A DNA stretch of 64,000 bases from Tulasnella sp. 424 (Eukaryota; Basidiomycota; Agaricomycetes; Cantharellales; Tulasnellaceae): assembly GCA_019633425.1 (NCBI GenBank), contig WSUB01000026.1, positions 124,001-188,000 of the forward strand. The letters are read 5' to 3'. Positions 14,996 through 36,999 of this stretch are shown in pieces (the first letter of the stretch is position 1; every line of letters starts with the position of its first letter). The position numbers and the translations under genes were made by a program. The notes beneath the pieces are model-generated. The model had not been told where the DNA came from. It did not search any database and worked only from the letters and a program-made list of their open reading frames with translations.

Positions 14996-15203
14996 CGCAC
15001 TGCTGCGAATGGCATGAACATCCGAATTGTGGCGGATTTCTAAACAATGATCGTTCGAATTTTACTCTTGTTGCGTTGTAGGGATCGTACGTGACGGCAT
15101 TCAGTCTGCATGTGGCAATCGCTTGGCATATAAATCCACGCAGACTTGGGGGGTGGAGGGGTGGGTCTATATATTCAAAGAACAGATATTACAAACATTG
15201 AAC
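14996..15203 (-). repeat. Egt1 3'-flank repeat split from copy B by the transposon
   Basis: The sequence matches the 3' flank of Egt1 copy D (47966-48190): CATCCGAATTGTGGCGGATT, AAACAATGATCGT, GGCAATCGCTTGGCATAT and ACAGATATTACAAA. It stops abruptly at 15203, where the transposon end begins, and the missing continuation is found at 36989 next to copy B. Confidence 0.75.
15193..15203. repeat. Target site duplication, left
   Basis: AAACATTGAAC abuts the left transposon end; AAACATTCAAC abuts the right end at 36989-36999. Copies A and D have AAAGATTCAAC and AAAGATCCAAC at the equivalent unoccupied position. The true duplication may be 8 bp within these 11. Confidence 0.65.
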
Positions 15204-15313
15204 CCTACTAAACCCCCCCCAGTAAAAGTGACCGGATAATCGGTCAGCATACGGGACAGAATGACCATGGCTTTCCCGGCCATTGCCCGTGAAAGCAAGC
15301 CGGTCAGACCTTT
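15204..15313 (+). repeat. Terminal inverted repeat, left
   Basis: Positions 15230-15312 match the reverse complement of 36876-36958 at 76 of 83 bases; six of the seven differences are transitions. The outermost 25 or so bases are less alike (CCTACTAAACCCC against CAGTAGAACGAACCCCC). It contains TTTCCCGG, the core of the subterminal motif. Confidence 0.75.
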
Positions 15314-15800
15314 GCAGGGCAAGTCAAGCGTGATTTTACCGGGAAGGCGTACAAGTTCTTGGACGGGAGAAACCGACCGCTAAACCCAGTAGAAGCCTGA
15401 TGTGAGGTTCATCAAGTGACATCTGTCCGGTTAGTGATAAAGGCAGGGCCGTGGTATTAGGCACACGGCAGATCTTTTTCATGGCATTAGTATGTGTAGG
15501 CGAGCTGTATCTCCTGGCGCATTATGTCGGTGAGAGAGGACGGTCAATCGACCGGGATGATATATTGATGCGAGCAACCACTACCTTTGGGATATTGCTA
15601 GCCTGTAATGTCATTCAGTTTACTCGTACTGGTACTCGCTAATGTGTGTGGCTCTAGCTCGATTCAACCCTTGTGTAGAGAATCGTCCAGGCCGTGCTCC
15701 TCCGCCGGCTGCCCACGATAAGCAGATGCCTTCATCTTTGAACAGAGACTACTCACGTATGGAGCCTGCTTGCCTGTGGCCTGCACGGCTGTTGAAGTTT

Positions 15801-17050
15801 CCCGGGGGAATTGACCGCATACAGCGAATCCGAAGGAGAGAAATCGGCGATCTGCTTCGGGCGGTAGACTAAATAGCAGCCAGAGTGGGAAGCCTTCACT
15901 CCTCATAGGTACTGCCGGTATATTGCACGTCCGTTCTGTCCGTTGCCCCCCACACAGTATATATCCCTGGTTATGTGTTCCCCGGGATAGTCGACCACAT
16001 ATTGAAATACAGGTCATGCTTTTGCCCGGGACCGTCGACCGCACATTGGACCGTCGACACCTCGACCTATTGATTCAGGGCATCGCATCATACCAAAAAT
16101 GCTTATTCAAGTTGGCAGCTATTTCCAGGTTACTCGCGGCAAACGACACGTAACTATGCAGAGGGACAGCTCAACACAAAACCTTTCAAATCTAGTTACC
16201 AAACCCTTGTTTAACAAGACACAAAAGATAACACCGTCGGGGCAAAATGAATAGATAACCCATGGTTTCTTCATCATCTCCCTCCATAGAATCGCTGTTA
16301 ACCAGTCCCCCGGGAAAATTTGCCGCTCTCGGGTCACCAAGATTTAAGGTGAGACAAATATTCTCAAGGGGCAGATTCAACGCAAAGGTTAGGAAGCCTT
16401 TGTTGTGCAACGCACGCCTGTTTTAACTGAAGCTCGCCTGAGCCGCACCGGCACCGGGAGAATAGACCGCCGCCGAAATCTCAAGGACTAGCGGTAGGTT
16501 GTTCAGGAGGTGCACGGAATAGGAAGATTGAAGGCCATTGTTATTTTTTTCAGAGAACTTATTTACATATGGCTGGCCAGCTCTCTTCATAGGCTCCATG
16601 AGCTTCCTGTATCCTCGATTAGATGTCGCCCGGGAAAGTCGACCGTCTAAAACACAACTTTTGTATCATCCGGGATAATTGACCGCCGATCGAAAGACAG
16701 CTTTTGTGCGCCCCGGGAAAGTCGACGGTCTTTTGAAACCCAGCTTTTGCAGGGTCACCCGGGAGGGTTGACCTTCTACCAAACACAGCTCTTCCGTGTT
16801 GTCCGGGAAAGTTGACCGCCGGTCGAAACACAGCTTTGCGCTGCACGAGAAAGCCAAATGCCTATTGAAACAGGTTATTTGCATCTGGCCGGCCTGCCCT
16901 CTCCATGGGCTCCTTGGGCCTTCAGTATCCTCAATTCGATATCATCCCCCGGGAAAGTCGACCGTATATTAAACCGCACCTGAGGTGTCGCCCGGGAAAG
17001 CTGACCGTCTTTTGAAACATAGCGTCTGTGGTTCCCGGGAAAGCTCACCG
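15801..17050 (+). repeat. Subterminal array of 13 degenerate 17-bp motifs
   Basis: The consensus is CCCGGGAAAGTCGACCG. Copies start at 15801, 15981, 16025, 16309, 16453, 16629, 16669, 16712, 16758, 16802, 16948, 16991 and 17034. The cluster 16629-16818 is spaced every 40-46 bp and its units continue with TTTTGAAACACAGCTTTTGT-like sequence. The copies lie between the transposon end and the transposase stop codon, with no genes in this 1.9-kb stretch. Transposases of other superfamilies bind repeated subterminal sites, so this is a candidate binding array. Confidence 0.7.
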
Positions 17051-17173
17051 CATATCGAAATCCAAAAGATAGATGGAGGGAGTTTATCTTGGCTGACATC
17101 TTGAAGGGGGGAGTGGCGGAGGTCAGAGAACTTTGGTGTGGATGCATTATTTAGTGAGATAACATCCCACAGT

Positions 17174-20100
17174 CTAGCTAAAAATCTCGTCGCCAACGTC
17201 AACTTCCTCTTCGCATTCTCCCATGTCACTGCTTTCCTCCACCTGTCCGACCTCCATTAAAGCATCCCAATTCTCTGGGCCACCAACCACCTGCGTGAAC
17301 GTTTGTCTTGCGTATTCAGCGAGGTGCACGTATAGCGAGAACTGTTTGGAAGCGTAGGCTTTGTAACCTGGGCTGTCTTCCCCATCACTCTCAACTCGCT
17401 GACTCCATGTCAGGGCTCGGTTCTCGAACCAGCGAACGGTGGCTGGCATTTCGACCCGAAGCAATCCGACCTCTTCACCCCAACGATCAAAGGCAGCGTG
17501 GGCGTGAACGTACTCGAGCCTTACAACTAAATAGAGAACGGTCAGTACGTTCTCTCAGATAGAAAGGAAAGCAAATCAACAGACAAACATACATTCATTC
17601 TTCCAGCTATCAATGACTTCCTCTAGTCCGGAAGGATTTTGAGGCTCTGCCTCTTGCTCTACATCCATCGCATCGGGGTTAGGCTGCACATTCCAGATCC
17701 ACGGCAGTTGACTTCCATGTTGCCTGTAGTGCTGCTCCTCTAAATATTCACTTAGTAGCATAAGATCCTCACGCCCTAATGGGCGTAGGCCAAACTGGCT
17801 TGCAACGTCAGGTGCACATTTTACCAGCCAGTTGTAGCATGCAGAATACGCCCGTGACGCCTCTTTGACCCGTGCCCGGCTAGCCTGAAGACTTGCTTGG
17901 CCCTTCGTCTTTTTATTTTGACTGGATTGCTGAGCTTTTGTGTGTCGTGTCCAGAAAGACCGCAAAGCGAGAGCCCTCTTGAGAGCCCGGAGGCAGTCGT
18001 ACGCGTGCCCCACACGGAGCTGGACCTCAACTTGAAGCAAGTCCTCGAGACCAAGAGCCTCTACTTGCTCTTTTGACAAACGTGATGGGAGCAGGATCTC
18101 GTCGTTATGAGGGGCGTCAAGGTCCGGAGAAAGATGCCGGCCACTTTCCCGGAACTGGGGCGCAACGTCAAGGAGAAGTGAATAGTGACGAGTCAGCCCT
18201 TCCTCGAGTTTTTTTCGAATATCCGCAATTTGCGCCCTGAGCTGAGAACTGGAAGAGAGCATTCGAGATGCGTCATGTGCGCGTTGACGGAGTTTTGCTC
18301 TAGGTGACCACAGGGCATGGTTAGCACTGACAAGCGCCACCTGTAAGGGATAAAACTGACTGCATTTCTTCGAGTTTTAACGCTTTGCAGACAAGGTCAA
18401 CATATGAAACGTTTTTGCTTTTGACTCTTCTCCCTGTAGCTGGGGCACTGAGGTCCTCCATTTGTTTCACCAGCTCTTTTCGCGAAGGCCCTGGGGGAAT
18501 GAAGTCATCAATTATTTGTTGATATTAGCAGGGCTGCAAGATTATAAGCTCAATAAGAACCGAACCGCACATTTAAGCTCGTCCCTATTTTCCAAAAATT
18601 GCTCGCCACCCGTCTCTTGGTATTCGATTTCTAAAGCTGAGACTGCCTCTTCACCAAGACTAAACTTGATATTGTTAAATCGGGTCTTGACCGATGTGAG
18701 GTATTGGATAGCGTTTAGATATGACCTTCTGAGAAAGTCGACTGAATAACCATCCTACGCGTCAGCGGGCGTTCCACCCTACGTGCCCAACAAATGCGCA
18801 CCAATTCCCATTAGCTTCTGCCAGTTCCAGTCGTTAAAGTGCTCTGAGAGAGTCTCTTCACGGCTTCCTGTGGTCATTTCCCGAGTGCTATAACGGAGCC
18901 AGTTCATGGATGCCCAAATCGTTTCAACGCCTTCACCACAAGTGCGCCCAACAAACTTGGTATAGTTGAGAGCATTCTTGGCACTACAGTCTTCTTCGTG
19001 GGACTCTTGATGAAATTTGTTGACACAGAACATGATGTGCATTTGTCCGTCAGGTGTGGGGACCAGTGCGACCGACGGGTTGTCGTTGAAGCAGCGCTTG
19101 GAGAAGTTTATGCCGTATTTGCAAGCTATATCGTATGTGATCACGAAGTAACGAATCCCACTTGCGTAAGATTCATTCAGCGGTCCTGAGAAGCTCACGT
19201 CCACCAGACGAAACCTATACAGACAACGAGATGAGAAGTCCAGCGAAGCCCAACGCCCAGTGAGACAGGAATTAATTACCTCTCTCCGTGATGAAAGTCA
19301 ACAACACCGTTCTTGCAAAGAAAGATGTGTCGGCATGAGACCGCAAAGATCCCGGTAATCTCAACCGCGTTCGCTCCTTCCGGGGTCAGGCCAGGGTCAC
19401 CGGCCATGGTGTTGCACGCACTCCTCTAGAAATTGGAGCAGTCAGTTACAAGGCCGAGCCGAGGAGAAAAATGAAGGATGAAAACAAACAGTGCCCGCTG
19501 GCTCATCAATAGCAGGAGAGGTGTTCTTGATGTAGTTGTAAAACGTCGTGTTCTTTGCCCAAAATGCGCCATCCCCTAGCATCGAGTCATACACCCTTGG
19601 ATCGTACTTTATGGACTTTCGCTTGGCTACTTTTTGAAGCTTAAAATTTCCATCACCCGATAGAAATCGGGAGTATCGGAGTTGACTGGGGCCCGCCCGG
19701 TAAAATAAACCAGCAATAATGCCGCCCAGGGGAACCAACCGAAATTCGTACGGAGGCCGTCCGGGAAATTCAACCGGAATTTGTATGGAAGGGACAAAGA
19801 TAGCAAAGCGTCACTATGCTGGCTGGAATCGCAACAAGATGGAAGGAGCCACAAGGTCTACACATACCGGAGCGGGTCGCTGTTCCAATTTTCTGGGAGG
19901 TTGATGCCAGGTTGAGGGCACGCCGGACAGCCCACGCAGAGCTCGCCCGGCTCAACTGGCGCCTCGGCGTCAAAACGCCCGGCCCTCATGTACATTATAA
20001 GCACTCTGTACTGACGAACAGCAATGCGCAGCTGATCGTAAATGTTCTATTGTAGTAATAGTTATTCCGAGTCAGCCACTGTTTCCTGAACGCAATTTTG

Positions 20101-21232
20101 GGAGCTTACCGAAACCCTCCGGTCACCCTTGGGATCAGCCCCATTCATTAAATCTACAGTAGCCCGGTAGTACTCCCTCAAGGTAGATTTTGCCCGGAGG
20201 TCAAATGTTTGATGGTGGTCTAGAAGTTCAAAGGTGAAGCCTGTCTGGGGCGCAAACTCCGTCGCTGGAAAGATCCGATGCTCAAGCAGTAACTTCCACC
20301 TGTCCTTCCCGTTGCAAGCACATGGACGAAATGTGGTCGAGTGCTGACCCGTTACATGAAGAATGTTCATGTCAAAATTGTCGCGAATCGAGGTTCGTGG
20401 GCAAAGGTCGCCACCGTGGCCCAACCCAACTTGCAGCCCAGCATCCTTCAAGCTTCGCCTCTCAAAGAACCCAAATCCTTTTGGGAACAAGCCTGACCAA
20501 TGTTCCGCCGCCTTCTCCACTGCCCGTGCTTTTGTGACCCATGCTTCAACTACGTGAAAAGGCATTTCACGGTGAGAGTTCCGAAGGCAACCCGTACAGA
20601 TAACCTTTCCACCAAAACAGGTAGCACACCGCCACATCTGAAGGCCTGTTGAATTAGGGTCGTATGTTGTCGTACATTCGCCGTTACTGCAGCACGAGAT
20701 TTCCGTCGGCGGGGCTTTCGCTGCCAGGAGAAAGGGGAGGTAGTGGGCACGTAGAAAGGACTTCTGCTGTTCCTGCTGCTGAGTCGCGTCATCTTCATCT
20801 TCTGGTTCTGAATCTAGGCTTGAAGAAGCCTGTCGAATGTTGTCCAAGTGGGTGAGGCCGCCAACTGCGGTAAACCTGCTCAGCTGCGCTTACCAATTGT
20901 GCCGTAATTGCAGCCTCGTCGAGTGCTCCGCCAACATCTTCCGTAAAACTTTCTCCTCCTATTGCCGTGATGAAAGAGTCCTCTGGCTGATTGTCTTCTC
21001 TCTGCTCGCTATGCTCCAGGTCCATGCCAAAGTCGAATTCGCCCAAGAAAACGTCTTGCGGTTGCCACCATCTCTTTCCCTTGGTTGAAGGTGAAACCAA
21101 GGGGGAGCTGCTGGAGCTACCCCCGACCGGGTCTTCTTCCTGACCTGTTGTTTGTCCTGGAATGTATGCAGTGAGAGGCAGTCGCTTTCCACGACGAGAT
21201 TTTTTTATTGGCGAAGGCAGTTTTGGCATAGC
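17174..21232 (-). CDS. KDZ transposase with CxC2-like zinc cluster
   Basis: This would be the transposase moving the element, acting on DNA in the nucleus. From the ATG at 21232 (MPKLPSPIKKSRRGKRLPLT, a nuclear-type basic start) there is an acidic region, then a cysteine cluster (ISCCSNGEC..., WRCATCFGGKVICTGCLRNS) typical of CxC2 partners of KDZ. Next come LQVGLGHGGDLCP and CPACPQPGINLPENW, followed by the catalytic core: GDGNFKL (first Asp), VITYDIACKY (second Asp), GEGVETIWASMNWL (Glu) and STREMTTGSREETLSEHFND. A helical C-terminal region (from about 18340) ends at 17174. There are many short introns; two junctions (near 20890 and 18780) need unusually short introns or small indels, so intactness is not certain. 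The long intron at about 19875-19690 holds another CCGGGAAATTCAACCG motif. Confidence 0.82.
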
Positions 21233-21332
21233 GTTCAGCACACAGAGAGGGGAGAGTGAGGAAAATAGATGCTTGCTAAGAACGCGTGGTAAATACAGGA
21301 AGAAGAAAATTGATTGCAAAGGCGTGCTGAAG

Positions 21333-22429
21333 TCACGTGCCCATCTTCAAGTCGCTGGGCGTGCGGCCGGAGTGAAACAACAGCGACGCTTTGCGAATCA
21401 CCGCCACTGACTCCGCCAGCTCTCTGAGTGTTTCTCTGGCCGTTGGGATCAGTGACGCTTTCCAAATCTCTCCTACGAGGCCGGCGATTTTCTTCTCTCC
21501 CTAATAGATAGCAGAGCCGCCGTCAGACCTTTGTCCGTTCTGTAGATACAATAAGACTTACAGTGCAATGGTCAGCGAAGCGTGAAGGATCTGTCAGAAA
21601 GACAGACAGAAAATGTCCCGGATAAAGGCCACAGTCGACGTCGTTCGGCTGCTGAGGAACCTGTAAAGAGTTTGTATTACCTCCAAGTTCAGCGACCAAG
21701 GAGACTCACCAGCGGATAGAAGAACTTGAGCGTTTTGATGCCGTCTTGTCGAAGAGCCTTTCCAATGGCTAGAACCTTGATCATCTGGCGCACGCGCTGT
21801 TCAAGGTTCGAGGGGTTGTGGCTCGATATGGAGTTGAGAACAACCACCGACGTGCGGATGGGGCCGGCCGAGTTGTGCTCTTGCAGCAGGTCAGAGGCAT
21901 ACGTTAGAATGCCAAGGAGCCAATGATTTCGATGGGCGTTGAGTGGAAATGCAACAAAAGTGTGGTCGAGGGCGCTATCCCATTTGTCCAGTTGGGTATG
22001 AGGCAACCAGCGGCCCTTGGTTTCTTGAATGGTGTAGAAAGCGCTTGTTGGCAGCAGACAGAGCTCTTTCAAGCGCCCAACATCTCCTGCTTCAAAGTAT
22101 GTATTAGTGACCTCGCTAAGGTAAAGGTCGACGAGGTGGTTCGTCAGCCATCCACGCGGCTGTAGCCTTTCGAAATAGGCTTGGTCGACGGGCGTATTCA
22201 CGGCTGAGCCGTATGTTTCAAACCGAATGAGAGGCTTTCCACCGTGGATTTCTTGGCCGACAAGTGGTGTTTCAGAGCGGTTGGGGATGCGGTATGTCCA
22301 TTGAGGTGGTAGAGGTTGGCGAGGCCCGACTGGCTGAACGTGGGGGGCTGGAGATCGTTCAGGGAGCATTATGACTCCGTCACCAACGTCGACTCCATCG
22401 GTTTCTTCAAAAGTAGGCATTGAGGTCAT
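21333..22429 (-). CDS. Ulp1/C48-type cysteine protease of the transposon
   Basis: Ulp1 proteases mature SUMO or remove it from target proteins. The first exon (MTSMPTFEETDGVDVGDG) has a Pro-rich N-terminus, then RGWLTNHLVDLYLSEV and FYTIQETKGRWLPHTQLDKW. The catalytic His is in NAHRNHWLLGIL and the oxyanion Gln and catalytic Cys are in VPQQPNDVDCGLYPGHF after an intron at about 21710-21663. A further intron precedes the last exon (GEKKIAGLVGEIWKASLIPT), which ends at 21333. The acidic residue of the triad is normally Asp in a DS-like motif; here the equivalent reads VVVLNSISS, with Asn. It sits 100 bp upstream of the transposase start on the same strand, so the two may be co-expressed. Confidence 0.82.
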
Positions 22430-23263
22430 GGGCTTGCGGTTTTAGAGAGAGAAAGTAGCGATGGTCAGAGGCCCGTGGTGGTCCAGAGCGTAACAAGGCA
22501 AAGAGAACCGCGGGAGCCTCGACAGTAACGTGACCAGAACGCGACTTTTGTTTTGGTTGCTGAGGCTCCGCCCCATCCAGCTCTCCGCAACAGAGCAACT
22601 CCAAAGCTAGGCAAGCTGTCGGAGCGTGGCTCTGTTATGGAAGGAGAAAGAGAAGGCTCTTGATGCCTAGTATCCTTACCGCGACGCGTCGTTCCTATTT
22701 GCTACCAGCCCAAATGCTTTTCCGACCTCAACGACAAGCATCCCCAAAGCTAGGCAAGCTGTCGGGGCGTGCCTCTGTTGGGAAAGGAAGGCAAGGGCCG
22801 GCGCTGATTACTTCGGTGCCTCCTGCCCGGGCCTCCAAACTCTGCACGAGAATCGGTGGGCCCCAAAGTACGTACCTTTCCTCGCACCTTGGTCGAACCA
22901 ACCTAACGGTTCGATTCTAATATAGGTTGTGTGGTCAGTAGCTTCCTGCTACTGCCTCGAGGCAAGGGCGTTGGCTCTCTTCGTCCAACCTTCTCTTCGC
23001 TCTTCTCGGCCCACAAGCCCGCCCCTACATCCGTACGTCCTTGAGAACTTCCTGCCCAAGACCTCCAGCTCTCGGCTGATAAATCTCTCCTGTTCCTTGC
23101 TGCAGTTGCTCCGGCCTTGCTTGAAATTCTCTCCTCAGGCTGGGATCGCAGCTACCAGTTTAAATTAGACCGGCGGTTCGCATTTCAGCACGGACTGGAG
23201 CTGCCTTTCACATTGCCCTTTGCCTCCACCTCTCACCTCTCCTCAAAGCATTCAACCCGTGAC
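22430..23263. promoter_or_regulatory. Divergent intergenic region with duplicated 36-bp element
   Basis: This 830-bp space separates the divergent protease and TET/JBP starts. CCAAAGCTAGGCAAGCTGTC plus the following GGAGCGTGGCTCTGTT occurs at about 22601-22636 and again, slightly changed, at about 22744-22779. The first copy is enclosed by an inverted AACAGAGC/GCTCTGTT pair. It is a candidate bidirectional control region; no core promoter is obvious. Confidence 0.45.
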
Positions 23264-25069
23264 ATGGAACCACGGAAGGTGTGTGAGAGTAGAGCGCTGG
23301 ACTGCCAACCTTTTTTGACCTGCATTGACAGCTGAGGTCGGGCAAAACGTACAGCTTATGGGCACTCGGCCACCCCACACTGGATCTAAACCTCGGGAAG
23401 CTAAACATAAAGGACGAGCCTAGCGACGACGACACTGACGACCTTGACAAGCCTTTCGTGCTCCCTGAGAACTATGTTGCCTCTTCTCTCCCCGACCTCG
23501 ACACGGCACAAGGCCTGGCCGCTCTTCAGGCACGGCTTCCAGCCCAACTACTCCCAAGCCCCCCAACCCCGACACCCAACTTATCGCCGACTGAGGAAGA
23601 CTGCGAAGACGTCCCGCCGGTTGACGGAAATAGGAACATCGGTATGTTGTTCACGTCGTTTGTCAGGGCAATAGACTGACCTCTACTCCCAACTCCGTCG
23701 TCAGGTACCATAAGCTCCACTCCTTTGGGCCTGCAGGCAAAACGCGCTCGTGAACGACAGAGGAAGAAAGAAAAGCTGGACGGCGCAGCTGGTCACGAAG
23801 CCCTTAGAAGGACCAAGTTCATCCAACGCTCTCTCTGCGTCGCGCACTCAGACTTCCTGGTCTTGGGGGCGCTTCATTCCAGAGAGGGATACCTTGGCGT
23901 TCCTGATCGAGGTGGTGAGTGGGCTGGAGAAGGTTCGACAAGTCAACGCTATGCCTTTCTCCGTGAAGTTGGAGGCTATCTTGACATTGACACGACGCTA
24001 GAGGCAAGGTGAGCCTAATCAACTCAGCTTTTGTTGTACTTGCTTATGGGCGCATTATATAGCGTCGACTACCCGTTTGTGGATCAGGAGGGAAAGGTGT
24101 GGGCTGTGGCCTTAGCCGAGCCCCTCAACTGGGAAAAGCGCCGAGCTGGCATTCGACAGGCAAAGGAGCGACTGGCGTGTAGAGTCGCAGAGCTAAAACC
24201 TCCAGAGAATCGCCGAGGAGATTTTCGTTCGTACCAGCACGGGTTCTCTTTTGGAAACGGACGGACAGTAAGTATGCGAGCTCAACAAGACGGCTCACTT
24301 TCATTCCTTACCTCCGAATTTCAGGAGCCCATGAACTTCGTCAATCGTCCGACTGTGCAGGCCGCGTTGGAAGAATTTTATCAAGACCCTGACGTCGTTG
24401 GATTGTTCCATTACGTTGAAGGTACGACCGGCCGTTACTAGGGAAAATAGACAGCTCACTTGTCCCTGGTCAGGTGGGCTCCGGACCTGGTTTCCAGACC
24501 ACCATGTCGACTATCGCGAGGCAATTAGCGCCGTTCAAGCAATCCATCCCAACATCCGGACTCCGATTAGCAACGGCAGTTTTCCGGCTTCAACAATCAA
24601 CACAGGAGAGTCCGTCGTTTGTAAACCTCATCGAGATGCCAGCAACGACGCGGCTGGTATCTGTCTGGATTATGTGGACGGCGACTACGACGTGCACCAA
24701 GGCGGGCATCTCATCCTCCACGAAGCTCGTCGGATTGTTAAGCTTCGCCTCGGCGGGATCATTCTCTTTCCATCTGCTATAATCACTCACGAAAACCTCC
24801 CTATCTGTCCCGATGAGACACGCTTCTCAATTACAGGTTACATCGCCGGCGGACTGCGCCGCTATCTCGCCGCTGGAGGCAAAACCCTTACCGAGTGGAG
24901 GCGAGCTGATCCCTTGGCTGCGGCCACTCATGACCAACAGGGGCAGGGGCGTTGGATTTCCGGGTGTGCTGGTTTCAAGACACCGACCGAGCTGGTTGAA
25001 TACTGGAAGAGCAGGTCTGCCGGCACGCCGGCAGAACCTTCCGCCGAGACTCCTGTCCCGGAAACTTAA
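23264..25069 (+). CDS. TET/JBP-family 2-oxoglutarate/Fe(II) dioxygenase
   Basis: TET/JBP enzymes oxidise the methyl group of 5-methylcytosine (TET) or thymine (JBP) using Fe(II) and 2-oxoglutarate. Five exons can be joined cleanly from MEPRK (ATG 23264-23266): an acidic N-terminus (KDEPSDDDTDDLDKPF), a basic nuclear-localisation-like stretch (QAKRARERQRKKEK) and the leading part of the dioxygenase (DFRSYQHGFSFGNGRT, EEFYQDPDVVGLFHYVEG). The double-stranded beta-helix follows with the HxD iron ligands (CKPHRDASNDAAGICL), HQGGHLILHE, the distal His (AIITHENLPI) and the 2-oxoglutarate Arg (DETRFSITGYIAGGLRRY). All predicted metal and co-substrate residues are present and no stop interrupts the model. 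Association of such genes with KDZ transposases is known in Coprinopsis and relatives. Substrate is inferred from the family. Confidence 0.8.
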
Positions 25070-25689
25070 ACACTCTGAACCTCTGGTCCTCTCACAGACC
25101 CTCATAGCCTTTCACAGCCTCCGTTCCTGCATGTACCTCTCACAGACCCTCACAGCTTCCGTTCCTGCCCGTTCCTCATGCTATTTTGACTGTACGAATT
25201 TACACCAAGCTTAACCGCTTTGTTGAAATACACTTTTTGATGTTGGCTCCAATGATGTACTATAACGAAGCCAGACAGTAACCACCCACTTTAAAGCAAT
25301 TTCTGTTTGCCTTTGCCTGGATCAGCTTGAGGGTCGATTAACGTCGGGCTGCAATCCCGGCAGGGTCCCAGCATTAGAGTGGCAGGGTCCACGGTCAGAA
25401 TGCCGACTCCGGTTGACTTGGAAAATCCGGCCGTAAGGCCTTTGCCACCTCGTGCCAGTTGAAAGACTACCGGAAGAGGCCGAACACCAGCCGGGAGACT
25501 CCTGGAAGACCTCCTCAACGCACCAAATGCTGAACAAAGGCGTTCTTGTCGTTGTAATGGTGCACATATGCACGAGTGAGAACTGTCCTGCTTCCCTCGG
25601 AGAAGTGGTGTTGATCAAGATAGAGCTGGGCAGCGGCACCAAGGCACCGGTCAACATGTAATTTCTGGCCCGGCTTACTGTTGTAATGG
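25070..25689. other. 3' region of TET/JBP gene, no gene recognised
   Basis: An imperfect direct repeat (CTCTCACAGACCCTCA, CCTCCGTTCCTGC / CTTCCGTTCCTGC) follows the TET/JBP stop at about 25090-25165. The rest is downstream of the decayed SDHA piece and shows no coding I can name. Confidence 0.4.
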
Positions 25690-26705
<1,016 letters not shown>

Positions 26706-27674
26706 CCAGGCAGGGTAATCGAAAGAAACTAACCTTGCCGATGTCGATCTTTTCTTTCTTGAGGAAGTTGAGAACATTTGTGAGGGTTTGAAGAGAGACG
26801 AGTTCGCCTGCGCAAATGGATTGCTGACCCTTCATCGGAAGAGCAGTCAGTTGCGGCAACAACGATAATGCAAAGCCTGGGCGAAATCCTTACCTCCACA
26901 TTAAAAGTTCACAAACCCTAGTAGTGTCTCTGTTCGCCGAGAAATAGTCTCTACAACCTCTCGAAGCGCAGCATCGTTGAAAGGAGAAATGCGACTGGGT
27001 TCACCGCGCACATGTCGTAGTTCAACCGATTTTGAGAATCTATCTTAACAGCTCGTTGCATGGTAATGCCTCGATAGAAACAGCGTTGACGAGTGAAGCG
27101 ATGGGCAATGGTATCGGCGATAGAAGCGAGGGCAGACCCGTAATATACCTTGTTTCAAATACTGTCCTTCGTCTTCCATTAGTGACAACCCAGCAGACGT
27201 ATGGAGACGGCGATGTCATGCTTGGTCAAACCGATTGGGCCGCCCAAGGAAGGGATAGCACTGGCGCTACTCTAACACCTGTGCCCGAAATATATATGAT
27301 TTTCACTAGAGTATGTAGAGTATCTCATCACTCTTGCGGTATTCTATCGCCTTCAAAGCGTGTTATCAATGACCGGACGCCCTTAGCTGCTTTGAGGCAT
27401 GAAAATTACGTCCCCCTCGTTTTTCTTCCTATCAGATTAACGACGCTATCGTACCTCGGACTTTCTCTATCTATTCTACTATTTTGGGGTACTCCCATCT
27501 GGGAATGTCGTCCAAACCATCTTGCCATAGCCGCGAAAAACGCTTTTCTCGGGAACGCATCGTTTATTTGTTCCATAAGCTGCCACTCGACCGAACACCA
27601 TTTCAAACTCAACTCTCCGTCCCGTTTTCAACACCTCACAGCGCCTTTTCATCGTGCCCATCCTCTCCATACAT
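26706..27674. other. Unassigned transposon interior
   Basis: A minus-strand frame at 26750-26862 (SICAGELVSLQTLTNVLNFL, KKEKIDIGK) has a protein-like character but does not belong to SDHA; it may be another captured exon. Otherwise nothing recognised up to the start of the next gene. Confidence 0.35.
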
Positions 27675-30600
27675 ATGGCTGAAAGTCCTCCATCCGACGA
27701 AGTTGTCCGTGAAGGTGCGTAATACCGTTGTCTTGGGCGTTCATTTCGTGGACTTCTGTTCATTTGGACTTGGCCGTCCCTGCGGAAAACTCACACCTTA
27801 CTGGTTTTCAGCACTCCAGATGTTTGAGGGCCTCGATGCAGCTCTAGCCGCTGCTATGCTAGACTCTGGTGCCTACAGCGGGCAGCTGGTAGGCCTGCTC
27901 TGGCAGTCGTGGTCGCAAGAATTTCGTACCACGGTCCTTAGGGAGGTTCAACCTGACACCCGGGAAGCTCTTGTGTGCGAGATTGACGACGTCCCGAGGC
28001 TAACAGAGGCCCTGCTTGACTCTCTCGGGGTTGACGAGGCAAAGGCTTTAATGAACGTCCTGATGCGAAAGGCGAAAGCTGATGGTGCTGTCTCACTCAA
28101 AACGCGCGTAGTTGCGCTCACCAGGTCCTTGATCAAGCCGCACGCTGTTGAAAATCGCGACCACATATCAACAGTGCCCAGTCCGCCTCTCCCCCTCTCA
28201 GCAAAGCCTTCTCCCCCACCGCCAGCCATCAATTTTCCCTCCCCTTTACAGCCCTCCTCGGTTTCGGGTCATGCCAACCAGAAACCTGCTTTGCCGTCCA
28301 AAGTCGTAGCGGCTGCAAATTCTCTCGTCCGTCCTATTTTGGCAGCTCAGGCCCCACAACCAGCGCTAAGGCCTCCAAATGGCAACGACCACAGCCACAG
28401 CCACGACCCTCCATCTGCCGCTTCTCCGACACACCCTCGTCCACCGCAATCTAATCTCCCTATCAACTGTTCAACTGAGTCCTTTAATTCACCTCTCCCT
28501 GACCGTGGTTCTGCAACCCGTGAGTCCCCCATACCTTCACCTTCTGCCGAAAAAGACGTCCTGATGCCAGTGCTAGCTACGGAACGTTCCTCACCTCAGC
28601 CGGAACAGGTTGCTGCTCGACGGATCGATCCCGGTTTGGCCCGGACCGCAAGGACTTCACCTCCACGGTCCGAGACGCCGCTGGATAGAGGAGGTCCTCC
28701 AACAAGTCCTCCTAGCCCTCCATCCCCCACAGTACCCCCTGTAGATGAGCTCTTTCAGGCCGAAGAAGATCGTGAGGAGGAAGTGGTGGAGTCGTCCGAG
28801 CATGCGTCCGAGTTGGAGAACGACGCCAGTGCTGAAGCTGCCAGCGCCCCAGCAACGCTTGAACAGGGGGATGAAGATGCCAGGTTTCACCCAAAGGGTT
28901 GGACGGCTGAGTTGAACGCCAAGAAAGTGGCTGAATGGGATTTGGAGCACGCTATCGACCACAATAGACGACACACGGCATCCGCACGGACAGAATGGAT
29001 GTATCAAAGTCGATTGAAAGGTATCGCATGTATCCTACCTAATACCCTTCTCTGTCAACCACTAACTGGCGGGTCATCTACAGATCGTACCGACGAGGAA
29101 TACGAAGAGCTCACAGCGTCTGAGTTTCAGAAGTTCGCCTCAATCCCTCCAGTCATTCGCAAAGAAGCCGGAATGGTCTTTAATAAGACCAGTAAGTTTG
29201 ATTTCGAAGCACGAGTGTTGCTGGGCCTCGTCGCTTTCAAATACTGCAAGATGGAGCCAGAAGAGGGGAGGAGGTATATGGTCAAGTCATTGACAAGGCT
29301 CGAGAACCGGTTACCAGACATTAGTCCGTCGCACCCAAAGCGCAGAATCGACAACGACGGTCCGGAGGCTGTGAGACGTTGGTGGAATGTACGCACAAGT
29401 GGTCTGTTATCCATATGTTGTCCTAACATCGTACCTCACATTCTAGGACATCAAGACCTGGATTACCACCGTTGCAGGCAAGATGCGAAAACTATTCGAC
29501 GAGAAAGGCAACAGTGTGGAGCTCCTCATGGTCTCCAAGAAGGCTACAAAATACGACCCTGCCGAGCTTTTGGGTCGGAAACGTGCGGGTGTGGCTTACA
29601 ATATCTGGGGTGCCACCGACCAGGGCACCACTATCTGCAATCCACTCATCAAAAAGGCTCTCGATCAATGGGTGAAAGAGAATCCAAAAGCCGCAGAAGA
29701 CGGCAGGAAGATAGGGCAGAAGGCCCTTTGGTTTAGTCAGAAGATTCGGCGAGCCCAATTTTTAAAGCAATCGGACGAAGTCCAGAAGCAATTCCATAAA
29801 GAGGCCAAGACCCCAGATGTCCCTCAGACAGATGAACAAAGGTTCGTATGTTCTCTCACCTCTGTTGCGACACTAACTCTTTTTCTAGGCAAGCCGGCAC
29901 AGAGGCCTGCCTGCCGTACCTCGTTCACATCTTGGATCAGGCAGCGGTGCTTCTTGGCATGCACATAGTTGTGTTCATGTCCGGGAAAACGTTAGGCGCA
30001 GGCGTTCCGATTATTGTGTGAGCTGACATCTCCGTCGCATGCGATACTCCCTAATCTTTGTTATCTTTACTAGCAAGGAGTTCACAAATAGCGAAGTCGA
30101 TTCGACCCCATTTCTTGAGGAGGGTTCGGTCGGGGACCGTGCCAAGGCGGAGTACGTCTCCTTTGCGGCCAAATACCACCAAGGTAACAGTTTTCGTTGC
30201 TCCCGCCTTTGCTTTGCTGACCTCCGGGCCTTGCAGCTGACCCAGCTCAGATACGAGTCTATGACCGAAGTGCAGCTGACACCATAGAAAAAGGGGGGCC
30301 GGAAGAAACTATTGCTGCGACGAACAAGTCGTCATCGCCTGTTAAGTCAACTCAAACGGCTAAGTCAATGCATCGCCTGTTCGACCCATCGCCTACTCTG
30401 AAGAAACGAGGCCCAAGAGGTGATTTCATGTCCAAATTCCTTTCCAAATGGTTTAGTGAGTTGCACCCGCTCCCGTTCTTGATTTCTCTGGCCAGCGTTT
30501 AACGTCCGAACTATTTCTAGCTCGGGTATTTGGGGGCAAGATAAATTGGTCCAAGGTGTCTCGCAACAACTCCCAATTCATCGACCTATCGCGCTTACCC

Positions 30601-33600
30601 AAGGACAAGGATGGGCGAACCGTTCCGCTTATGAACCCGACTGCCATGCCTGACGAAGCCTTCGAGTTCTACTGGGACCACCTGCTCCAAAGCACGCGAG
30701 GCCAACTACCCGAAAACGATCGCTTTCTTTGGCACGGAGAGGACCTCCACTTCAACCTTCCGGCTGTGAAGCCTCCGGTCGATTCTTCGGTCCACGTTGC
30801 TGGGGAACAGGCGGCAAAGACTCAACTGGGAAAGCGCAAACGTGGTTCCGAACGTCGTAGTGGCAAGCAAGGTGCTAAAGCTGCAAAACGGTCCGGCAAA
30901 AAGAGACAGTCGACAACCAGGTACTCAGATGACGATGAAGACGGTGAAGACTTCATGGAGCTGATCCAGGAGGTGGAGCTGGGGGAGCTGGGCAAGAAAC
31001 CCAATTCGCAAGCACGGCACCTTCGTCCTTGCAAAAAGTCCCTGAACCAGGCAGTGGTAGCCGAAGATGTTGATCCCGGTCGAGAGTCTAGTCTGTCGGG
31101 GTCTGACGACGATTATGCACCCGAGGAGGAGGAGAAGGTCGATTATAGTCAGGGCAGTATGGAGGCTGAGCACCTACCTGCAGTAGAAGAGGAGGAAGAG
31201 CGTCTGTCGGAAGATGGAGATCATGGGCTGGGAGAGGAAGCGGCTGAGGGAACGGCCAATCTAGAGGTCGGGGACAGCGTTTCAGGAGTCCATGACGTTG
31301 CCAAGGAAGTTACAGAGACTGGAGATCATGGTCTGGGAGAGGAAATGGTCGATCAAGGAGTCGGGGCGGGCGCTGCCAAAGTCGACGACGTTGCCGAGGA
31401 GATTATGTTTGCAGGAGAAGAAGACTCAAGAAGCAGCTCTCTTGAGGCCACCACGCTGCCCCAAGGAGTCCCAGCCGATGAAGCCAGCGACGTTTTACTG
31501 GCGGGTGATGAATCTATGGATTGGGGACCACATTCGTCAGCAGCTGTGGAGGAGGATCGCCCGCTCACAGAAATCCTACTGGACGCACCCACATCGCGCC
31601 CTTCCTCACTCGAAAGTCCGGCCTGGCTTAGAGTACGTGTATGCCTCTCCTTCACTCCTGAAATTCACTGATACATTTTGCCGATTAGTTCATGAAATCT
31701 CTGCACTTGTGGGGCAGGAAACTAGCCGGCCTTAGTCCACAGAGCCAAAAGATCGCTCTCAGCCCAGACAAGGTATCAGGATGCACTGTTCCTATACCCG
31801 CCGCACTCACTAGCGCCGTTGCCATTATGCAAACCTGGGTGTCTTTCCAGCAGCTGGATCCTCGAACGGTGGGTGACATATCTGGTTGACTGCGGATTGA
31901 GCTGATTCATGGCAACTTTCTCGGTTTTCTTAGCCTGAAATCTCCGTTGCAGTCCACCCGCACCTTGGCCTTGAATCGGTCACACCTCGCCACCACATTC
32001 GTCAAGCAGTGGAGGTGATCTTAGACGTTACCAAGCCTCTCCCGACCGCAAAGATCCTAGAGGTCAACCTGCATATCTCCTCTGTTGCCATCGAAGCACT
32101 GTATACGCACTTCGAGCTTGGGCTCGTTCGCTTTCTCCTGGACCTGACTCACACTTCAGACACAGTCCGCTTCAGTGATGTCGAGCTTCTCAGCCCGCTT
32201 CGGCTGGCGTCGTTCGTGCATGCATCTGTGTTTGTTCGGGATCCTAGCAAGGAAGGACTGGTCTCGAGATGAGTCGAGAAGATCCTGGACCGCTTTGTTG
32301 TGATCCTCGCTGGAGTTGCGGTTGTTCGTTACATGGAGGCATTTCTTGGGGGTGCCGTTGAGGAGTGGGTGCGGAAGGCCCGGTTGGAACCTAGCGTTGG
32401 CTCAATGTGGAGGGCTCTCAAATTACTCTGGTCACCTGCGGTGGAATCGCTTTCGCGAGCCATTTCTGTTGGGAGAGAAGATGTACGTGACCTGCCTTAT
32501 CTTTCCGGATTCCTCCATGGCTCATGTGTACATTACTAGCTTTTCGTCGTCAAATGGGCAGAGTCCCATTTACCTTTCCCAACGTACTCCATTCTCCGTC
32601 ATATCCTCGTCAGCCCTGCATGGTGGCAGGCTCCTCAGTCTGGAGTCCCTCAGGCTTTCCGGTTCGGTACCAAGCAGACTCTGTTCTCGCCTTTGCTCGA
32701 AGAAATAATCCTTGCATGCAATTGGTCCCTCCTTACTTTTTTGGACCGGAGCATGGTACTTCTATTGCTCTTTGCTTGCGCGGTGCAGCTATCGGAAGAC
32801 GGCGCGAAGGAGGACATTGTGAGGTTCACGGAGCTTTTGGGATCTCTTTGGTCAGCAGTAAACCGTGAGTTGGAACTCCATGCACTTTCTCTGCAATCGC
32901 TTATTAAAACGATCAAAACTAGGCTCGGGCACAGAGGAAGGGCCTCTTGCTCCCCTGTACTTCCATGATGAGGCAGCAACAGCAGAGGTTGACGACTGGA
33001 TCGCTGTCTGGGCAAGTGAGAAGATAATGGTCGTGCAGACTGAAAACGCACTTGATCTCGACATCCCTCCCGCCACTCCACCCATACCTCCCGAACGCCC
33101 TTCTCAAGGGTTGTCGGAGGTTTCTGCTGGGTCAGCCGGACGACCAGAGACACCTACACCGCCAACGACGAAGTTCTCTCATGAAGTCCCTCAAGCACAG
33201 CCTACAACCACTCCGGTACCCTCTCCAACGGGCTCTCAGGTCGCGTTAAACAAGTCTACAGCCAACCAAGATTCTGGTGGTGAAGCAGTCATCGAGGATA
33301 CTGAGGACGTGCCAAGAGCCAAGGGCAAGCGGAAAGTCCGGGTTGGCCGGCAGCTTATCCCCGATCCTTCAGTGGGGGCCGCAGTCGATCCCAAAAAACG
33401 ACTCCGGCAGGCGGTGAAGAGAGCGGAAGAGAGAGGCACGATGCTACTAGAAGAGCAGCCTCAACGAGCTGCACGTAAGGACAACCCACCTGTCAGGAGC
33501 ACACCTGCGAGAGGAGCGAAGGCGGAGGTCAAGCCGTTGAAGGAGGCTCCCAAGACCAAGGCATCTGGTTTGTCAGTGGGGAGAAAGAAGCCGGTGTCTC

Positions 33601-33812
33601 TGGTGAAGAAAGTGCAAGCAGCCAGTCGAGCTTCAAGTCCGAGAAAGACGCGGGCCTCAGGTTCAAAGGTTAAGGGACCTGAGATCGGAGCCCTCGCTGC
33701 AACCAACCAGCCAACGTCCGCTCTCACTCCAGCGCAAAAGCGAGCCGCTACAATCGCAAGCAAGAAGGCTGCTAAAGCAGCTGCATCGCTCAAGGTGGAC
33801 CAAGTCATGTAG
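27675..33812 (+). CDS. Large unknown multi-exon gene in transposon, one in-frame stop
   Basis: The product is unrecognised. Start MAESPPSDEVVRE (ATG 27675-27677), a clean intron, then ALQMFEGLDAALAAAMLDSG in a long first block with a Pro/Ser-rich low-complexity region (28170-28740) and an acidic region. Conserved-looking globular segments follow: WTAELNAKKVAEWDLEHAID, KAGVAYNIW-like text (KRAGVAYNIWGATDQGTTIC), EACLPYLVHILDQAAVLLGM, and SRNNSQFIDLSRLPKDKDGR. A second acidic stretch (30940-31600) and a Lys/Arg/Ala-rich C-terminus (to 33812) suggest a nuclear or chromatin-associated protein. Similar large orphan proteins occur in Agaricomycetes. An in-frame TGA at 32270-32272 (after DPSKEGLVSR) is followed by coding in the same frame (VEKILDRFVVILAGVAVVRY), so the gene may be broken there or split in two. 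Confidence 0.6.
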
Positions 33813-35021
33813 GTCGGTAATGCCCTTTCTCTCGCTTTGTTGTATAGCCTCTTGTTAGATTTCTATCGCTTTTGTATCTAGTGTTTTGGCTCAGGATTAT
33901 CAGTATTATAGTATTGGATGGAAAGGAGACAAGTGCATGGCGTTTGCTTTTGTCGATGTTAAGTTTCAACTTCAAAGCAAAAACAGCGGGGTGCGGATTC
34001 AACCACAGACATCTACCACAGAGGCTATAGCATTAAATGATTGCGACGAAAGCTATGGGGTCGAAGTTTGGAAAGAACCGGGTGGTACAGGAAAAAGTGA
34101 AAGTCGGCGAAATTGGGCGGGCGGTAGAGCTGACGGCTCATTCTCCCGGCGGCGTCCTCTGCACAGCTGCTGACCCATGTCGCAGGGATCCGTCGATATA
34201 GAGCCATTTGCTTACAGGGCGATGTTAAACGAAGGCGACGAAAAGGAGGCGGCAAGAGATGAGAGGGGGAAAATGCATGGGTTGCAGGGGAGGGGCACAG
34301 CGGGGGAATTGACCGGAGACTCCCCCGGCGGACGCCGCTTCCAACGCAACCGCCGACAACCCAGGTTTGGACATTCTCGTGGCTGAGTCCAGCCCAAAAG
34401 GCTGAAAGATTTGGCAAGGCGTTCACAGGAGAGAGTCAAGGCTGAAAAATGGTTGCCAAGAGGTGGGGTGGCCGGGAGAGTTCATGGTATGCTATCCTGG
34501 CGGGAGGAACTTCAAACACAAGGAACGAATTTTCAGCACACTCAACTTAAGCAACACTGAATCAACTACTAAATCGAGTCCGGAGCAGTCACATAATGTC
34601 CTAAGCAATGCAAACGAGAGACTCAAGGCTGCGGGCTAATGGCAGAAGCGTATGGCAGGTGCCGGGCGGCAAAGCTAACGGCACGGATTCCCGGCCATTT
34701 CGACTGCGGACAGAACGACCTCGAGACCAGCAGCTAACCCGTTGCTTCTTCTAAGAAATGGCCTAATGACAAGCACCAGAGATGGTGTTCAGAAATGCAG
34801 GAGAGAAGCCCCAATGCAGGGGCTGATTGCGCAGCGGGTGTCTGGGCGGGAGGCGCAGCGGTCGGCTTCCTCGGCCGCATTTGTTTCCACACCTTGCACC
34901 ACTGAAGCTATACTACAGGATAAGTATATTGAGGAAGATGAAAAAATTCAAATGAAGATGTGTTTGAGAGATTCATAGCGGAAGGAGCTTTATCATCTAT
35001 GTAATACGACCGCTATCATGT
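33813..35021. other. Transposon interior without genes
   Basis: Downstream of the 6-kb gene. Contains scattered CCGG-rich pieces resembling the subterminal motif (near 34140 and 34300-34330) but no coding region or ordered repeat I can support. Confidence 0.4.
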
Positions 35022-36008
35022 TAGGGTTGCCGAGAGAGCGATCGGTGATCTTTCCTGGTGACCACCCGGGATAGAAATGCTACGTAATTTGCTGGTCTCG
35101 AGATGGATGTAGTGAGATTGGTGAGAGAGCTAACAATCTGAATTGGCGTGTAAATTAGTGAGACATGATGAAGAAATGCAGGACAAAACTGGGGGTGCCG
35201 AGATAGCAGTTGGTGACTTTCCCCGGCTAGCACCCGGGATAGCAAGCACCCTTAATTTGCTGGTTCCGAGGTGATGTAGTGGAGTTAATGAGAGAGCCAA
35301 CAAGCGTGTGAGTAAGTGAAAAATCATGAAGAAATGCAGGACAATGCCGGGGTTGCCGAGATAGCAGTTGGTGACCTTTCCCGGTGAGCTCGATAGCAAG
35401 GTTACTTCATTTGCTGGTCCCGAGAGTGTGATGTACTGGGGTTAGTGAGAGAGCTGGCTGGGCCTGTCAATGGGTGAGAGATGACGAGGAAAATGCAGGC
35501 TGAAGCCGGGGTCGCTGAGGTAGCAATAAGTGAACCCACCTGGTGACCACCCGGCATAGCAAAGCTGCGTGATTTGCTGGTCCCGAGAGGGATGTAGTGG
35601 GATCGGTGAGGGAGCTAACAAGCGGAATGGGCGTGTAAGTAAGTGAGAAATGATGAAGAAATGCAGGACAAAACCGAGGTTGCCGAGATAGCAGTCGGTG
35701 ACCTTTCCCGGCGAGTACCTGGGATAGCAACGCTACGCGTAATTTACTGGTCTCGAGAGTGATGTAGTAGGATTGGTGACGGAGCTAACAAGCTGAATGG
35801 GCGTGTAAGTTAGTGAGAAATGATGAAGAGGTGCGGGACAAAACCAGGGTTGCCGAGTTAGCAATCGGTGACCTTTCCCGGCGAGCACCCGGGATAGCAA
35901 GGTTACTTAATTTGCTGGTCCCGAGAGGGGTGTAGTGGGGTCGGTGAGGGAGCTAACAAGCTGAATGAGGCTAGCGAGCGATGAGAAAGAAAATGCAGGC
36001 TGCGGATG
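35022..36008. repeat. Six-unit tandem satellite, unit about 157-171 bp
   Basis: Units begin near 35022, 35190, 35350, 35508, 35676 and 35847, each with the order GTTGCCGAGATAGCA, TCGGTGACCTTTCCCGG, CACCCGGGATAGCAA, TTGCTGGTCCCGAGAG, GATGTAGTGGG, GAGGGAGCTAACAAGC and GATGAAGAAATGCAGGACA. A seventh, incomplete unit may start at 36009. TCGGTGACCTTTCCCGG is the reverse complement of CCGGGAAAGGTCACCGA, so each unit carries the left subterminal motif in the opposite orientation, as expected for inverted transposon ends. Confidence 0.8.
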
Positions 36009-36874
36009 GTGTCGAGCGGGCTCTCATGGGTGGCGAACGCTCCCCGGGAATCCCTACCGGTAGTCCCTCCCGCGATAAGTGACAAGTAGGATAACAATTA
36101 AGATAAATATGACTCTAATTCTATAATCGAGGAAATATATTCCGTCCATGTGGATGCTAGGCTACAAGGTTATCTGAGTGTCCTGCCGGGAAGTGGTGCC
36201 GGCACCTTTCCGCTCACGCCGGTAAATACCACCGGTGTTATCTGTTGTAATGAGATCTCTTGAATCTTCAGTTTTTCCGCTTGGCTTGCATTGAGTACGG
36301 TCGTTGGCTTCCTCCGAGCATGATCGCTGCTGCCCCGAGCGGCAAATGCGGCGGGAAATTTGCCCATCGGCACACCATCGCCCATTCACCAGTCCTAGAT
36401 AATCAGACAAAGACTTGTTAGATCGATTCCCCTTCAGTTAAGGAAATTTAAACTATGCCCGCTGAGACACGCACTACTGGACGAGTGGCCGGGAGATCCC
36501 TCCGGATCGACTGCCCGGGGCGGGGTGGGCAACTCCTATTTTCAGCTGGTGAGCTCTCCCATTTGTCATTATTAGAGAGTTCTAACTCACATCCGTCAGT
36601 CCATATTTCTGTCAGCCGAGCGCGAAAACCATCCATTACATTTTACCGGCTGACTGAGTTCTGTCCAGCTTCCTGTGGACAGCAGAGGCTTGACTGGGGC
36701 AATGGGTTCAGATATCTTGCTATAGCTGCGGCGCTCCATAAACGGCTGCCTTCTAGGACAACAGGTCCGGTCTTCCTAGCCCTACAAGTCCACTCAGTAT
36801 TGCCAAGGGGTTCATGACCATGCTCGGCTCTTTTTGCCCGCGCCGCCGGCGAAATTGGTGATGACTTGGCATGC
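36009..36874. other. Right subterminal region, no gene
   Basis: Between the satellite and the right inverted repeat. Several CCGG-rich pieces (GAGTGGCCGGGAGATCCCTC near 36485, CCCGGGAATCCC near 36043) are reminiscent of the motif but too divergent to count. No coding region supported. Confidence 0.4.
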
Positions 36875-36988
36875 CAAGGTCCGACTGGCTTGCTTTCGCG
36901 GGCAATGGCCGGGAAAGCTAAGGTCATTTTGTCCCGTATGCTAACCGATTATCCGGTCCCCTTTGCCGGAAGGGGGTTCGTTCTACTG
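36875..36988 (-). repeat. Terminal inverted repeat, right
   Basis: Reverse complement of the left terminal repeat; see the left copy for identity. The outer end lies 35 bp beyond the stop codon of Egt1 copy B. Confidence 0.75.
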
Positions 36989-36999
36989 AAACATTCAAC
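36989..36999. repeat. Target site duplication, right
   Basis: AAACATTCAAC, pairing with AAACATTGAAC at 15193-15203. It is followed at once by the remaining 3' flank of Egt1 copy B. Confidence 0.65.

What the first reader, a model, noticed from the sequence alone, without database searches (positions are those of the whole stretch)
15204..36988. A 21.8-kb KDZ transposon with both ends, a target duplication and an internal empty-site control
Inverted ends (15230-15312 against 36876-36958, 76 of 83 identical) are flanked by AAACATTGAAC and AAACATTCAAC. The sequence left of the element (14996-15203) and right of it (36989-37022) together rebuild the 3' flank of Egt1 copy B. That flank exists uninterrupted beside copy D (47966-48190). 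This fixes the boundaries without outside data. Complete ends of large KDZ elements are seldom defined.
Basis: partly seen in the sequence, partly recalled or inferred. Interest (0 to 1): 0.9.

Follow-up and report, generated by a model that had tools for sequence, protein, structure and literature searches.

The report
Complete jumping gene with DNA-demethylase-like gene
A fungal chromosome carries a complete 21.8-kb mobile element that holds its own cutting enzyme and a gene resembling a DNA-demethylating enzyme, has picked up pieces of two ordinary host genes, and landed beside one of several repeated genes, so its exact borders can be read.

Summary
The finding is real, and the borders can be set to the base. 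The element is 15200-36988 (21,789 bp), flanked by a perfect 7-bp target duplication, AAACATT, not an imperfect 11-bp one. Three end copies elsewhere in the genome begin at these borders. The three uninterrupted paralogous flanks (Egt1 copies A, C, D) show the unduplicated site. The inverted ends (76/83) sit inside long ends rich in CCGGGAAAG repeats. Inside are a CxC2+KDZ transposase (open through the KDZ domain), a Ulp1-like protease, a TET/JBP-like dioxygenase, and two adjacent intron-containing pieces of unlinked host genes: succinate dehydrogenase (Sdh1) and fatty-acid synthase beta. The element is CpG-depleted compared with its flanks, as if methylated. Nearest protein relatives are in Tulasnella (Cantharellales); one Tulasnella species seems to carry transposase and dioxygenase together. 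Complete TET-bearing KDZ elements were published in December 2025 (PMC12730594), including 7-bp duplications in Kyakuja, so the kind is known. New, as far as I could see, are the fungal order, long inverted repeats with a 7-bp duplication, the subterminal arrays and the host-gene capture. It belongs to KDZ; filing it as Kyakuja fails on inverted repeats and left terminus.

The parts
15200..36988 (.). whole element, 21,789 bp
   Evidence: end copies on three other contigs begin at these borders (C202 one base earlier); empty-site paralogs
15193..15199 (+). left target-site duplication AAACATT
36989..36995 (+). right target-site duplication AAACATT
15211..15326 (+). left inverted-repeat arm (tip GAACCCTACTA from 15200 is outside the repeat)
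   Evidence: 86% over 117 aligned columns with the right arm; 76/83 core
36862..36978 (-). right inverted-repeat arm (outer tip, read inward from 36988: CAGTAGAACG)
15797..17067 (+). left subterminal array of CCGGGAAAG-type repeats, presumed transposase sites
   Evidence: 12 sites with at most 1 mismatch in 15200-17200, 10 of them forward, against a Markov-chain mean of 0.7
35024..36068 (-). right subterminal array, about 168-bp repeats holding the same motif
   Evidence: 11 sites in 35000-36988, 7 of them reverse, against a mean of 0.5
17174..21229 (-). CxC2+KDZ transposase, about 10 exons; 5' 720 aa modelled
   Evidence: PF18758 1-217 E 1.4e-45, PF18803 E 3e-21; P0006 (1119 aa) matches 21229-17198 in pieces
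21500..22420 (-). Ulp1-like (C48) protease gene, at least two exons; HRNHW and QQPNDVDCGLY motifs; 3' end approximate
   Evidence: PF02902 E 0.025, below cut-off; same gene beside KDZ on C206; motifs placed
23264..25069 (+). TET/JBP-like Fe(II)/2OG dioxygenase, 6 exons, 508 aa, open (exon 1 read by eye)
   Evidence: homologs P0001-P0004; Pfam 2OG-FeII_Oxy_3 below cut-off
25662..26719 (-). captured fragment of host Sdh1 (SDH flavoprotein), introns kept, lacking 16, 8, 29 and 10 bp
   Evidence: 87% to C13:424075-425193; TIGR01816
26722..27136 (-). captured fragment of a host fatty-acid synthase beta gene
   Evidence: 87-91% to C225, C231, C224, C320; host gene identified by PF00698 and PF22235
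27820..31671 (+). unknown element gene, several exons (coordinates approximate)
   Evidence: ORFs; one homolog, 53% over 48%
31934..33812 (+). unknown element ORFs
   Evidence: no Pfam match for 32862-33812

Best explanation
A complete, low-copy class II DNA transposon of the KDZ superfamily. Shown: both termini, the 7-bp target duplication, the empty site in three paralogs, an open transposase core, an open TET/JBP-like gene. Inferred: the transposase binds the CCGGGAAAG-type repeats arrayed in both ends and in the inverted-repeat arms, cuts at GAACCC.../...CTACTG, and inserts into a 7-bp staggered target. The TET/JBP-like enzyme is thought to oxidise methylated bases and so counter host silencing, and the Ulp1-like protease may strip SUMO or act on element or host proteins. 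During gap repair the element picked up DNA pieces, introns included, of two unlinked host genes, Sdh1 and FAS beta, joined within 2 bp of each other.
For: Ends fixed by three other genomic copies and three empty paralogs. KDZ and CxC2 domains. Subterminal motif 12 and 11 sites per 2-kb end against 8 in the 17.8-kb middle and 9 in 42.2 kb outside. The transposase and dioxygenase homologs of Tulasnella sp. 427 bear locus numbers 5207 and 5209 on contigs of the same length, 21,517. KDZ and TET-like matches share a contig in 6 of the 9 contigs with a TET-like match. Median CpG observed/expected 0.86 inside against 1.06 outside, 43 and 84 windows, p 6.5e-9. Captured pieces: host CpG turned to TpG/CpA 24 times against 7 in reverse, the same changes outside CpG 20 against 21, Fisher p 0.016.
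Against: No second full copy was found by DNA, so mobility itself is not shown. Two transposase splice donors read GTGCG where relative C206 reads GTGAGT, so the gene may be decaying. The window dioxygenase does not hit Pfam Tet_JBP, nor credibly any solved structure; the predicted structure was unusable (pLDDT 39.5). No methylation data. A lone right-end relic (C268) lacks a partner within the 34 kb read. Of the five other contigs with both genes only C307 and C234 have them divergent as here; C418, C147 and C151 have them convergent. The CpG bias is carried mainly by the Sdh1 piece; the FAS piece gives only 3 against 0, and the FAS piece (1.16) and the dioxygenase gene (0.96) are not strongly CpG-poor.
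Confidence: 0.92

Rival explanations
1. A nest: the ends belong to one element and the dioxygenase, captured pieces or right-hand genes came in later as separate insertions.
For: Captured pieces abut each other within 2 bp; the region 25070-25661 has no other copy found in the genome; the right-hand gene searched has one known homolog; gene order differs on three of the five other contigs with both genes.
Against: No long inverted or direct repeat marks the borders of the captured block. Transposase and Ulp1-like gene are together on C206, transposase and dioxygenase are divergent about 4.7 kb apart on C307 and C234 and are probably together in Tulasnella sp. 427.
Confidence: 0.12
2. It is a Zisupton- or Dileera-type KDZ element with an 8-bp duplication in which one base has mutated.
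For: Long inverted repeats, as in Cryptococcus KDZ1-3 (139-241 bp, 8-bp or 4-8-bp TSD; PMC12810828); Kojima reports no TIRs for the first Kyakuja families.
Against: An eighth base would be G against C, and the end copies and copy D explain that base as element on one side and host on the other.
Confidence: 0.2
3. The inverted ends and duplication are a chance or assembly artefact in a tandem-duplicated locus.
For: The locus is a tandem array of Egt1 copies, a place where assemblies can go wrong.
Against: End copies on three other contigs begin at the same borders with unrelated flanks; a random 7-base match at preset ends has a chance of about 1 in 16,000 (calculated).
Confidence: 0.02

Closest known systems
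TET-bearing Kyakuja families (Kojima 2025, PMC12730594)
   Same: KDZ transposase with a TET/JBP-type gene, 7-bp TSD, right terminus ..TG-3'.
   Different: Those first described have no TIRs and start 5'-CA; here an inverted-repeat arm of about 117 bp and a left tip GA[A/G]CC. The paper's text lists five agaricomycete orders (Agaricales, Boletales, Polyporales, Russulales, Auriculariales) and its main text does not mention Cantharellales or Tulasnella; its supplementary tables were not seen.
KDZ1, KDZ2, KDZ3 of Cryptococcus neoformans (PMC12810828)
   Same: KDZ transposase with a CxC cluster, long TIRs, complete ends and TSDs.
   Different: 9-11 kb, CxC1 rather than CxC2, 8-bp (4-8) TSDs; the passages seen mention no TET gene.
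CxC2-KDZ elements of Pleurotus ostreatus (PMC7641404)
   Same: CxC2 precedes KDZ in every intact element, as here.
   Different: No ends or duplications in the passages seen.
Gene-fragment-capturing DNA transposons (Pack-MULEs; fungal Helitrons such as those of Pleurotus, PMC4289320, listing and abstract start only)
   Same: Pieces of host genes inside a DNA element; introns kept and pieces side by side as in Pack-MULEs (recalled).
   Different: Different transposase family; here the pieces sit in an apparently autonomous element.

Membership tests
KDZ superfamily | KDZ transposase domain over its length | tested here: met
   PF18758 positions 1-217, 156.1 bits against a cut-off of 26.6
KDZ superfamily | CxC cysteine cluster N-terminal to KDZ | tested here: met
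   PF18803 CxC2, 76.1 bits against 27
KDZ superfamily | 7- or 8-bp target duplication at defined termini | tested here: met
   AAACATT on both sides
Kyakuja | 7-bp TSD | tested here: met
   as above; definition from PMC12730594
Kyakuja | 5'-CA..TG-3' termini | tested here: not met
   right end TG in the window and C268, left end GA in the window, C202 and C349
Kyakuja | no TIRs (as stated for Kyakuja-1_LB and -2_LB) | tested here: not met
   76/83 inverted arms
Kyakuja | transposase falls in the Kyakuja branch | not tested
   no labelled reference sequences at hand
TET/JBP dioxygenase | HxD ... H metal site | tested here: met
   HRD and a downstream His (ITHENLP) read, kept in P0001 and P0002 (P0003 and P0004 lack this part); assignment as the metal site is by motif
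TET/JBP dioxygenase | profile match to Pfam Tet_JBP | tested here: inconclusive
   no match for the window protein; paralog on C418 matches at E 2.5e-4, below the curated cut-off
AG-type TET (Kojima 2025) | Gly/Ser at H+5 and Asp at H+11 (Gly331, Asp337 of CcTET) | tested here: inconclusive
   ungapped reading gives Asn and Cys; no alignment with CcTET could be made
PE-type TET (Kojima 2025) | HxE instead of HxD | tested here: not met
   HRD (definition)
Ulp1/C48 protease | catalytic His-Trp and Gln...Cys motifs, profile match | tested here: inconclusive
   HRNHW and QQPNDVDCG present; PF02902 E 0.025, below cut-off, on the first exon only

The most novel reading that the evidence does not exclude
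KDZ transposons act as exon shufflers: this apparently autonomous, demethylase-armed element captured DNA pieces of two unlinked housekeeping genes, and those pieces now serve as a recorder, showing by their CpG decay that the host methylates the element that its dioxygenase is meant to protect. The dioxygenase would be a fourth, cantharellalean type beside PU, AG and PE.
Probability: 0.3. Interest if true: 0.7.

Novelty: new variant of a known kind. Interest (0 to 1): 0.5.

Why it matters
It gives base-exact ends, a duplication and natural empty-site controls for a large TET-bearing KDZ element in what appears to be an orchid-mycorrhizal lineage (Tulasnella; the ecology is recalled), and ties three things in one piece of DNA: an element, an enzyme thought to undo DNA methylation, and captured host sequences whose host originals are known. 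That makes it testable whether transposon-borne TET enzymes protect their carriers, because CpG decay can be counted inside the element against host genes.

Tried and rejected
End-like motifs CACCC[A/G]TACTAAACCCCG on C98 and C166: rejected as ends, because their flanks match each other as well. C379 motif: a lone one-mismatch match. At 2 mismatches the end patterns are at noise level: 11 matches against 39 for the reversed control, and 10 against 11.

No partner end was found for C268 within 66001-100000 (a Ty3/gypsy element lies beside it). C202 runs off its contig 690 bp inside the element and C349 reaches its contig's start and holds gypsy ORFs, so their own TSDs could not be read.

Ends of the C206 relative: not found by similarity to ours in the 14.9 kb read.

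Structure of the dioxygenase homolog P0001: pLDDT 39.5, pTM 0.26, not used. Solved-structure searches by sequence (no match) and profile (two matches, E 0.2 and 1.7, to a ribosomal protein and a tetraspanin): not credible.

Nested-element reading of the captured block: the repeat finder lists only short or imperfect pairs (longest inverted pair 23 nt at 78%), none at both borders of the block. I first read the C225 second match as a terminal inverted repeat; the flanks shared by the copies and the gene content showed these are gene copies (FAS beta), so it was dropped.

In one search the BLAST queries themselves began at the proposed borders, so that call could not show where similarity ends, with 100 bp of flank, does.

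Literature: searches. None of the listed titles or abstract starts reports KDZ elements carrying host gene fragments or TET-KDZ elements in Tulasnella; only listed rows were seen. The founding KDZ paper (Iyer et al. 2014) is recalled and cited by others; I did not read it.
Full report
Borders. To fix the tips I searched the window's own genome (46.8 Mb, 448 contigs). Besides the two own ends, the left-end query found C268, C202 and C349 and the right-end query found C268. Aligned with their flanks, C202 and C349 share GAGCCGTACTAAACCCCC where the window has GAACCCTACTAAACCCCC, and diverge before it. C268 shares CAGTAGAACGAACCCCC with the window's right end, read inward, and diverges before it. 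BLAST with 100 bp of flank in the query begins at window base 15200 for C349, 15199 for C202 (one further shared base) and 36988 for C268. Between these borders lie 21,789 bp, flanked on both sides by AAACATT.

Empty site. The flank recurs uninterrupted beside three other Egt1 copies. Joining the two host flanks around one AAACATT gives a sequence that aligns through the junction with all three, each with the target present once: AAAGATT|CAAC (A), GAAGGTT|CAAC (C), AAAGATC|CAAC (D). A 7-base stretch a few bases further right is present only in the B flank. These are paralogs, not alleles; no strain without the element was available.

End anatomy. CCGGGAAAG with at most one mismatch occurs 12 times in the left 2 kb and 11 times in the right 2 kb, against 8 in the 17.8-kb middle, 5 in the 15.2 kb to the left and 4 in the 27 kb to the right; Markov-chain resamples of the ends average 0.7 and 0.5, maximum 3. 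On the left 10 of 12 read forward, on the right 7 of 11 read reverse, a partial mirror symmetry. Pairs 16-17 bp apart in opposite orientation recur, also within the inverted-repeat arms. Such arrays usually bind transposase (established for other superfamilies, recalled); that is inference here. The one relic right end (C268) and the left ends of C202 and C349 show one exact core site each in the stretches scanned, so the array is not shown to be shared by the relatives.

Genes. On the minus strand lies a CxC2+KDZ transposase. A model with six introns reads 720 aa open, matching PF18758 over 1-217 (E 1.4e-45) and CxC2 (E 3e-21). The 3' exons are open, but their splicing was left unresolved (55 open combinations), and two donors read GTGCG where C206 has GTGAGT. 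The protein search returned 13 homologs, 12 from Tulasnella (45-60%) and one from Antrodiella citrinella (29%), with only the 7,996 best candidates scored. Upstream is a Ulp1-like gene, kept beside the transposase on C206 (Pfam C48 below cut-off). On the plus strand is a six-exon, 508-aa dioxygenase gene; exon 1 was read by eye, the rest. Its four homologs are all from Tulasnella (46-61%; 7,995 candidates scored). It keeps HRD and a downstream His. Pfam gives a sub-cut-off 2OG-FeII match, and Tet_JBP only for the C418 paralog, also below cut-off. I call it TET/JBP-like. That they share a contig is an inference, as is the placing of the window's fungus near Tulasnella (order Cantharellales).

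Family in this genome. KDZ matches lie on 10 contigs (12 matches) and TET-like matches on 9; both occur on 6: C179, C307, C234, C151, C418, C147. On C307 and C234 the two genes are divergent as here; on C418, C147 and C151 they are convergent. No other DNA-level copy of the interior was found with the pieces 15204-17200, 21400-25661, 25300-26700 and 26720-36800, except end fragments and donor genes; 17201-21399 was not searched as DNA in the genome. The tool scores only best candidates.

Captured host DNA. Bases 25662-26719 match the host Sdh1 gene on C13: 979 of 1,121 columns, or 979 of 1,056 aligned bases. Introns are kept, and 16, 8, 29 and 10 bases are missing in the captured piece. Two bases further on, 26722-27136 matches four FAS beta gene copies at 87-91%, identified by the acyl-transferase and FAS1 insertion domains in the host gene on C231; C225 holds a further short match. 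Both pieces lie in the same orientation. No convincing repeat marks the block's borders. Capture at the DNA level during repair, inside the element, is the simplest reading; whether the element has moved since is unknown.

CpG decay. CpG observed/expected has a median of 0.86 in 43 windows of the element and 1.06 in 84 flanking windows (p 6.5e-9). By part it ranges from 0.66 (25070-25661) to 0.96 (dioxygenase gene) and 1.16 (FAS piece; two host copies 1.29 and 1.37). One gypsy region of the same genome shows 1.02, so this is not a feature of every mobile element. In the captured pieces, host CpG became TpG/CpA 24 times and the reverse happened 7 times; outside CpG the same changes number 20 and 21 (Fisher p 0.016; Sdh1 alone 21 against 7 and 16 against 17, p 0.04). 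This fits deamination of methylated CpG. It assumes that today's host genes stand for the source.

Comparison. PMC12730594 (abstract, passages, sections 18, 23, 25 and 34 read) describes complete TET-bearing KDZ elements: Kyakuja with 7-bp TSDs, CA..TG termini and no TIRs; Zisupton and Dileera with 8 bp. Its text names five agaricomycete orders and not Cantharellales. PMC12810828 (12 of 30 passages) gives active Cryptococcus KDZ elements with long TIRs and 8-bp or 4-8-bp TSDs. PMC7641404 and PMC8290104 (three passages each) report CxC2-KDZ in Pleurotus and TIR motifs in Marasmius. The present element mixes a Kyakuja-length duplication with long inverted repeats. It is KDZ; I do not file it as Kyakuja.

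Noticed in passing
window 6291-8839, 37737-40885, 41591-43166, 48812-52095 (minus strand): Four tandem Egt1-like copies; histidine-specific methyltransferase domain (PF10017) found in ORFs of copies A, B and D, none in the two ORFs scanned of copy C, whose ORF 42279-43166 joins the start directly to a later part, as if the middle were deleted.
   Followed up: partly
window 45025-47023: Protein kinase fragment followed by a TPR array with a 120-bp tandem period; its reverse strand resembles the flank left of the element (14643-14993).
   Followed up: no
L024 2126-7487 (C268) and C349 3-3102: Ty3/gypsy-like ORFs (named by eye) lie beside or inside relic ends of this KDZ family.
   Followed up: no
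window 19867-19686: Transposase intron 3 is 182 bp, while relative C206 has about 47 bp between the same exons.
   Followed up: no
window 25070-25661: 592 bp beside the captured block with the lowest CpG observed/expected of the parts measured (0.66) and no other genomic copy found; origin unknown, perhaps a third, decayed capture.
   Followed up: partly
window 27403-33812: Right-hand genes of the element: no Pfam family over its cut-off in the four ORFs scanned and a single database homolog, of unnamed origin, for the one exon searched.
   Followed up: partly
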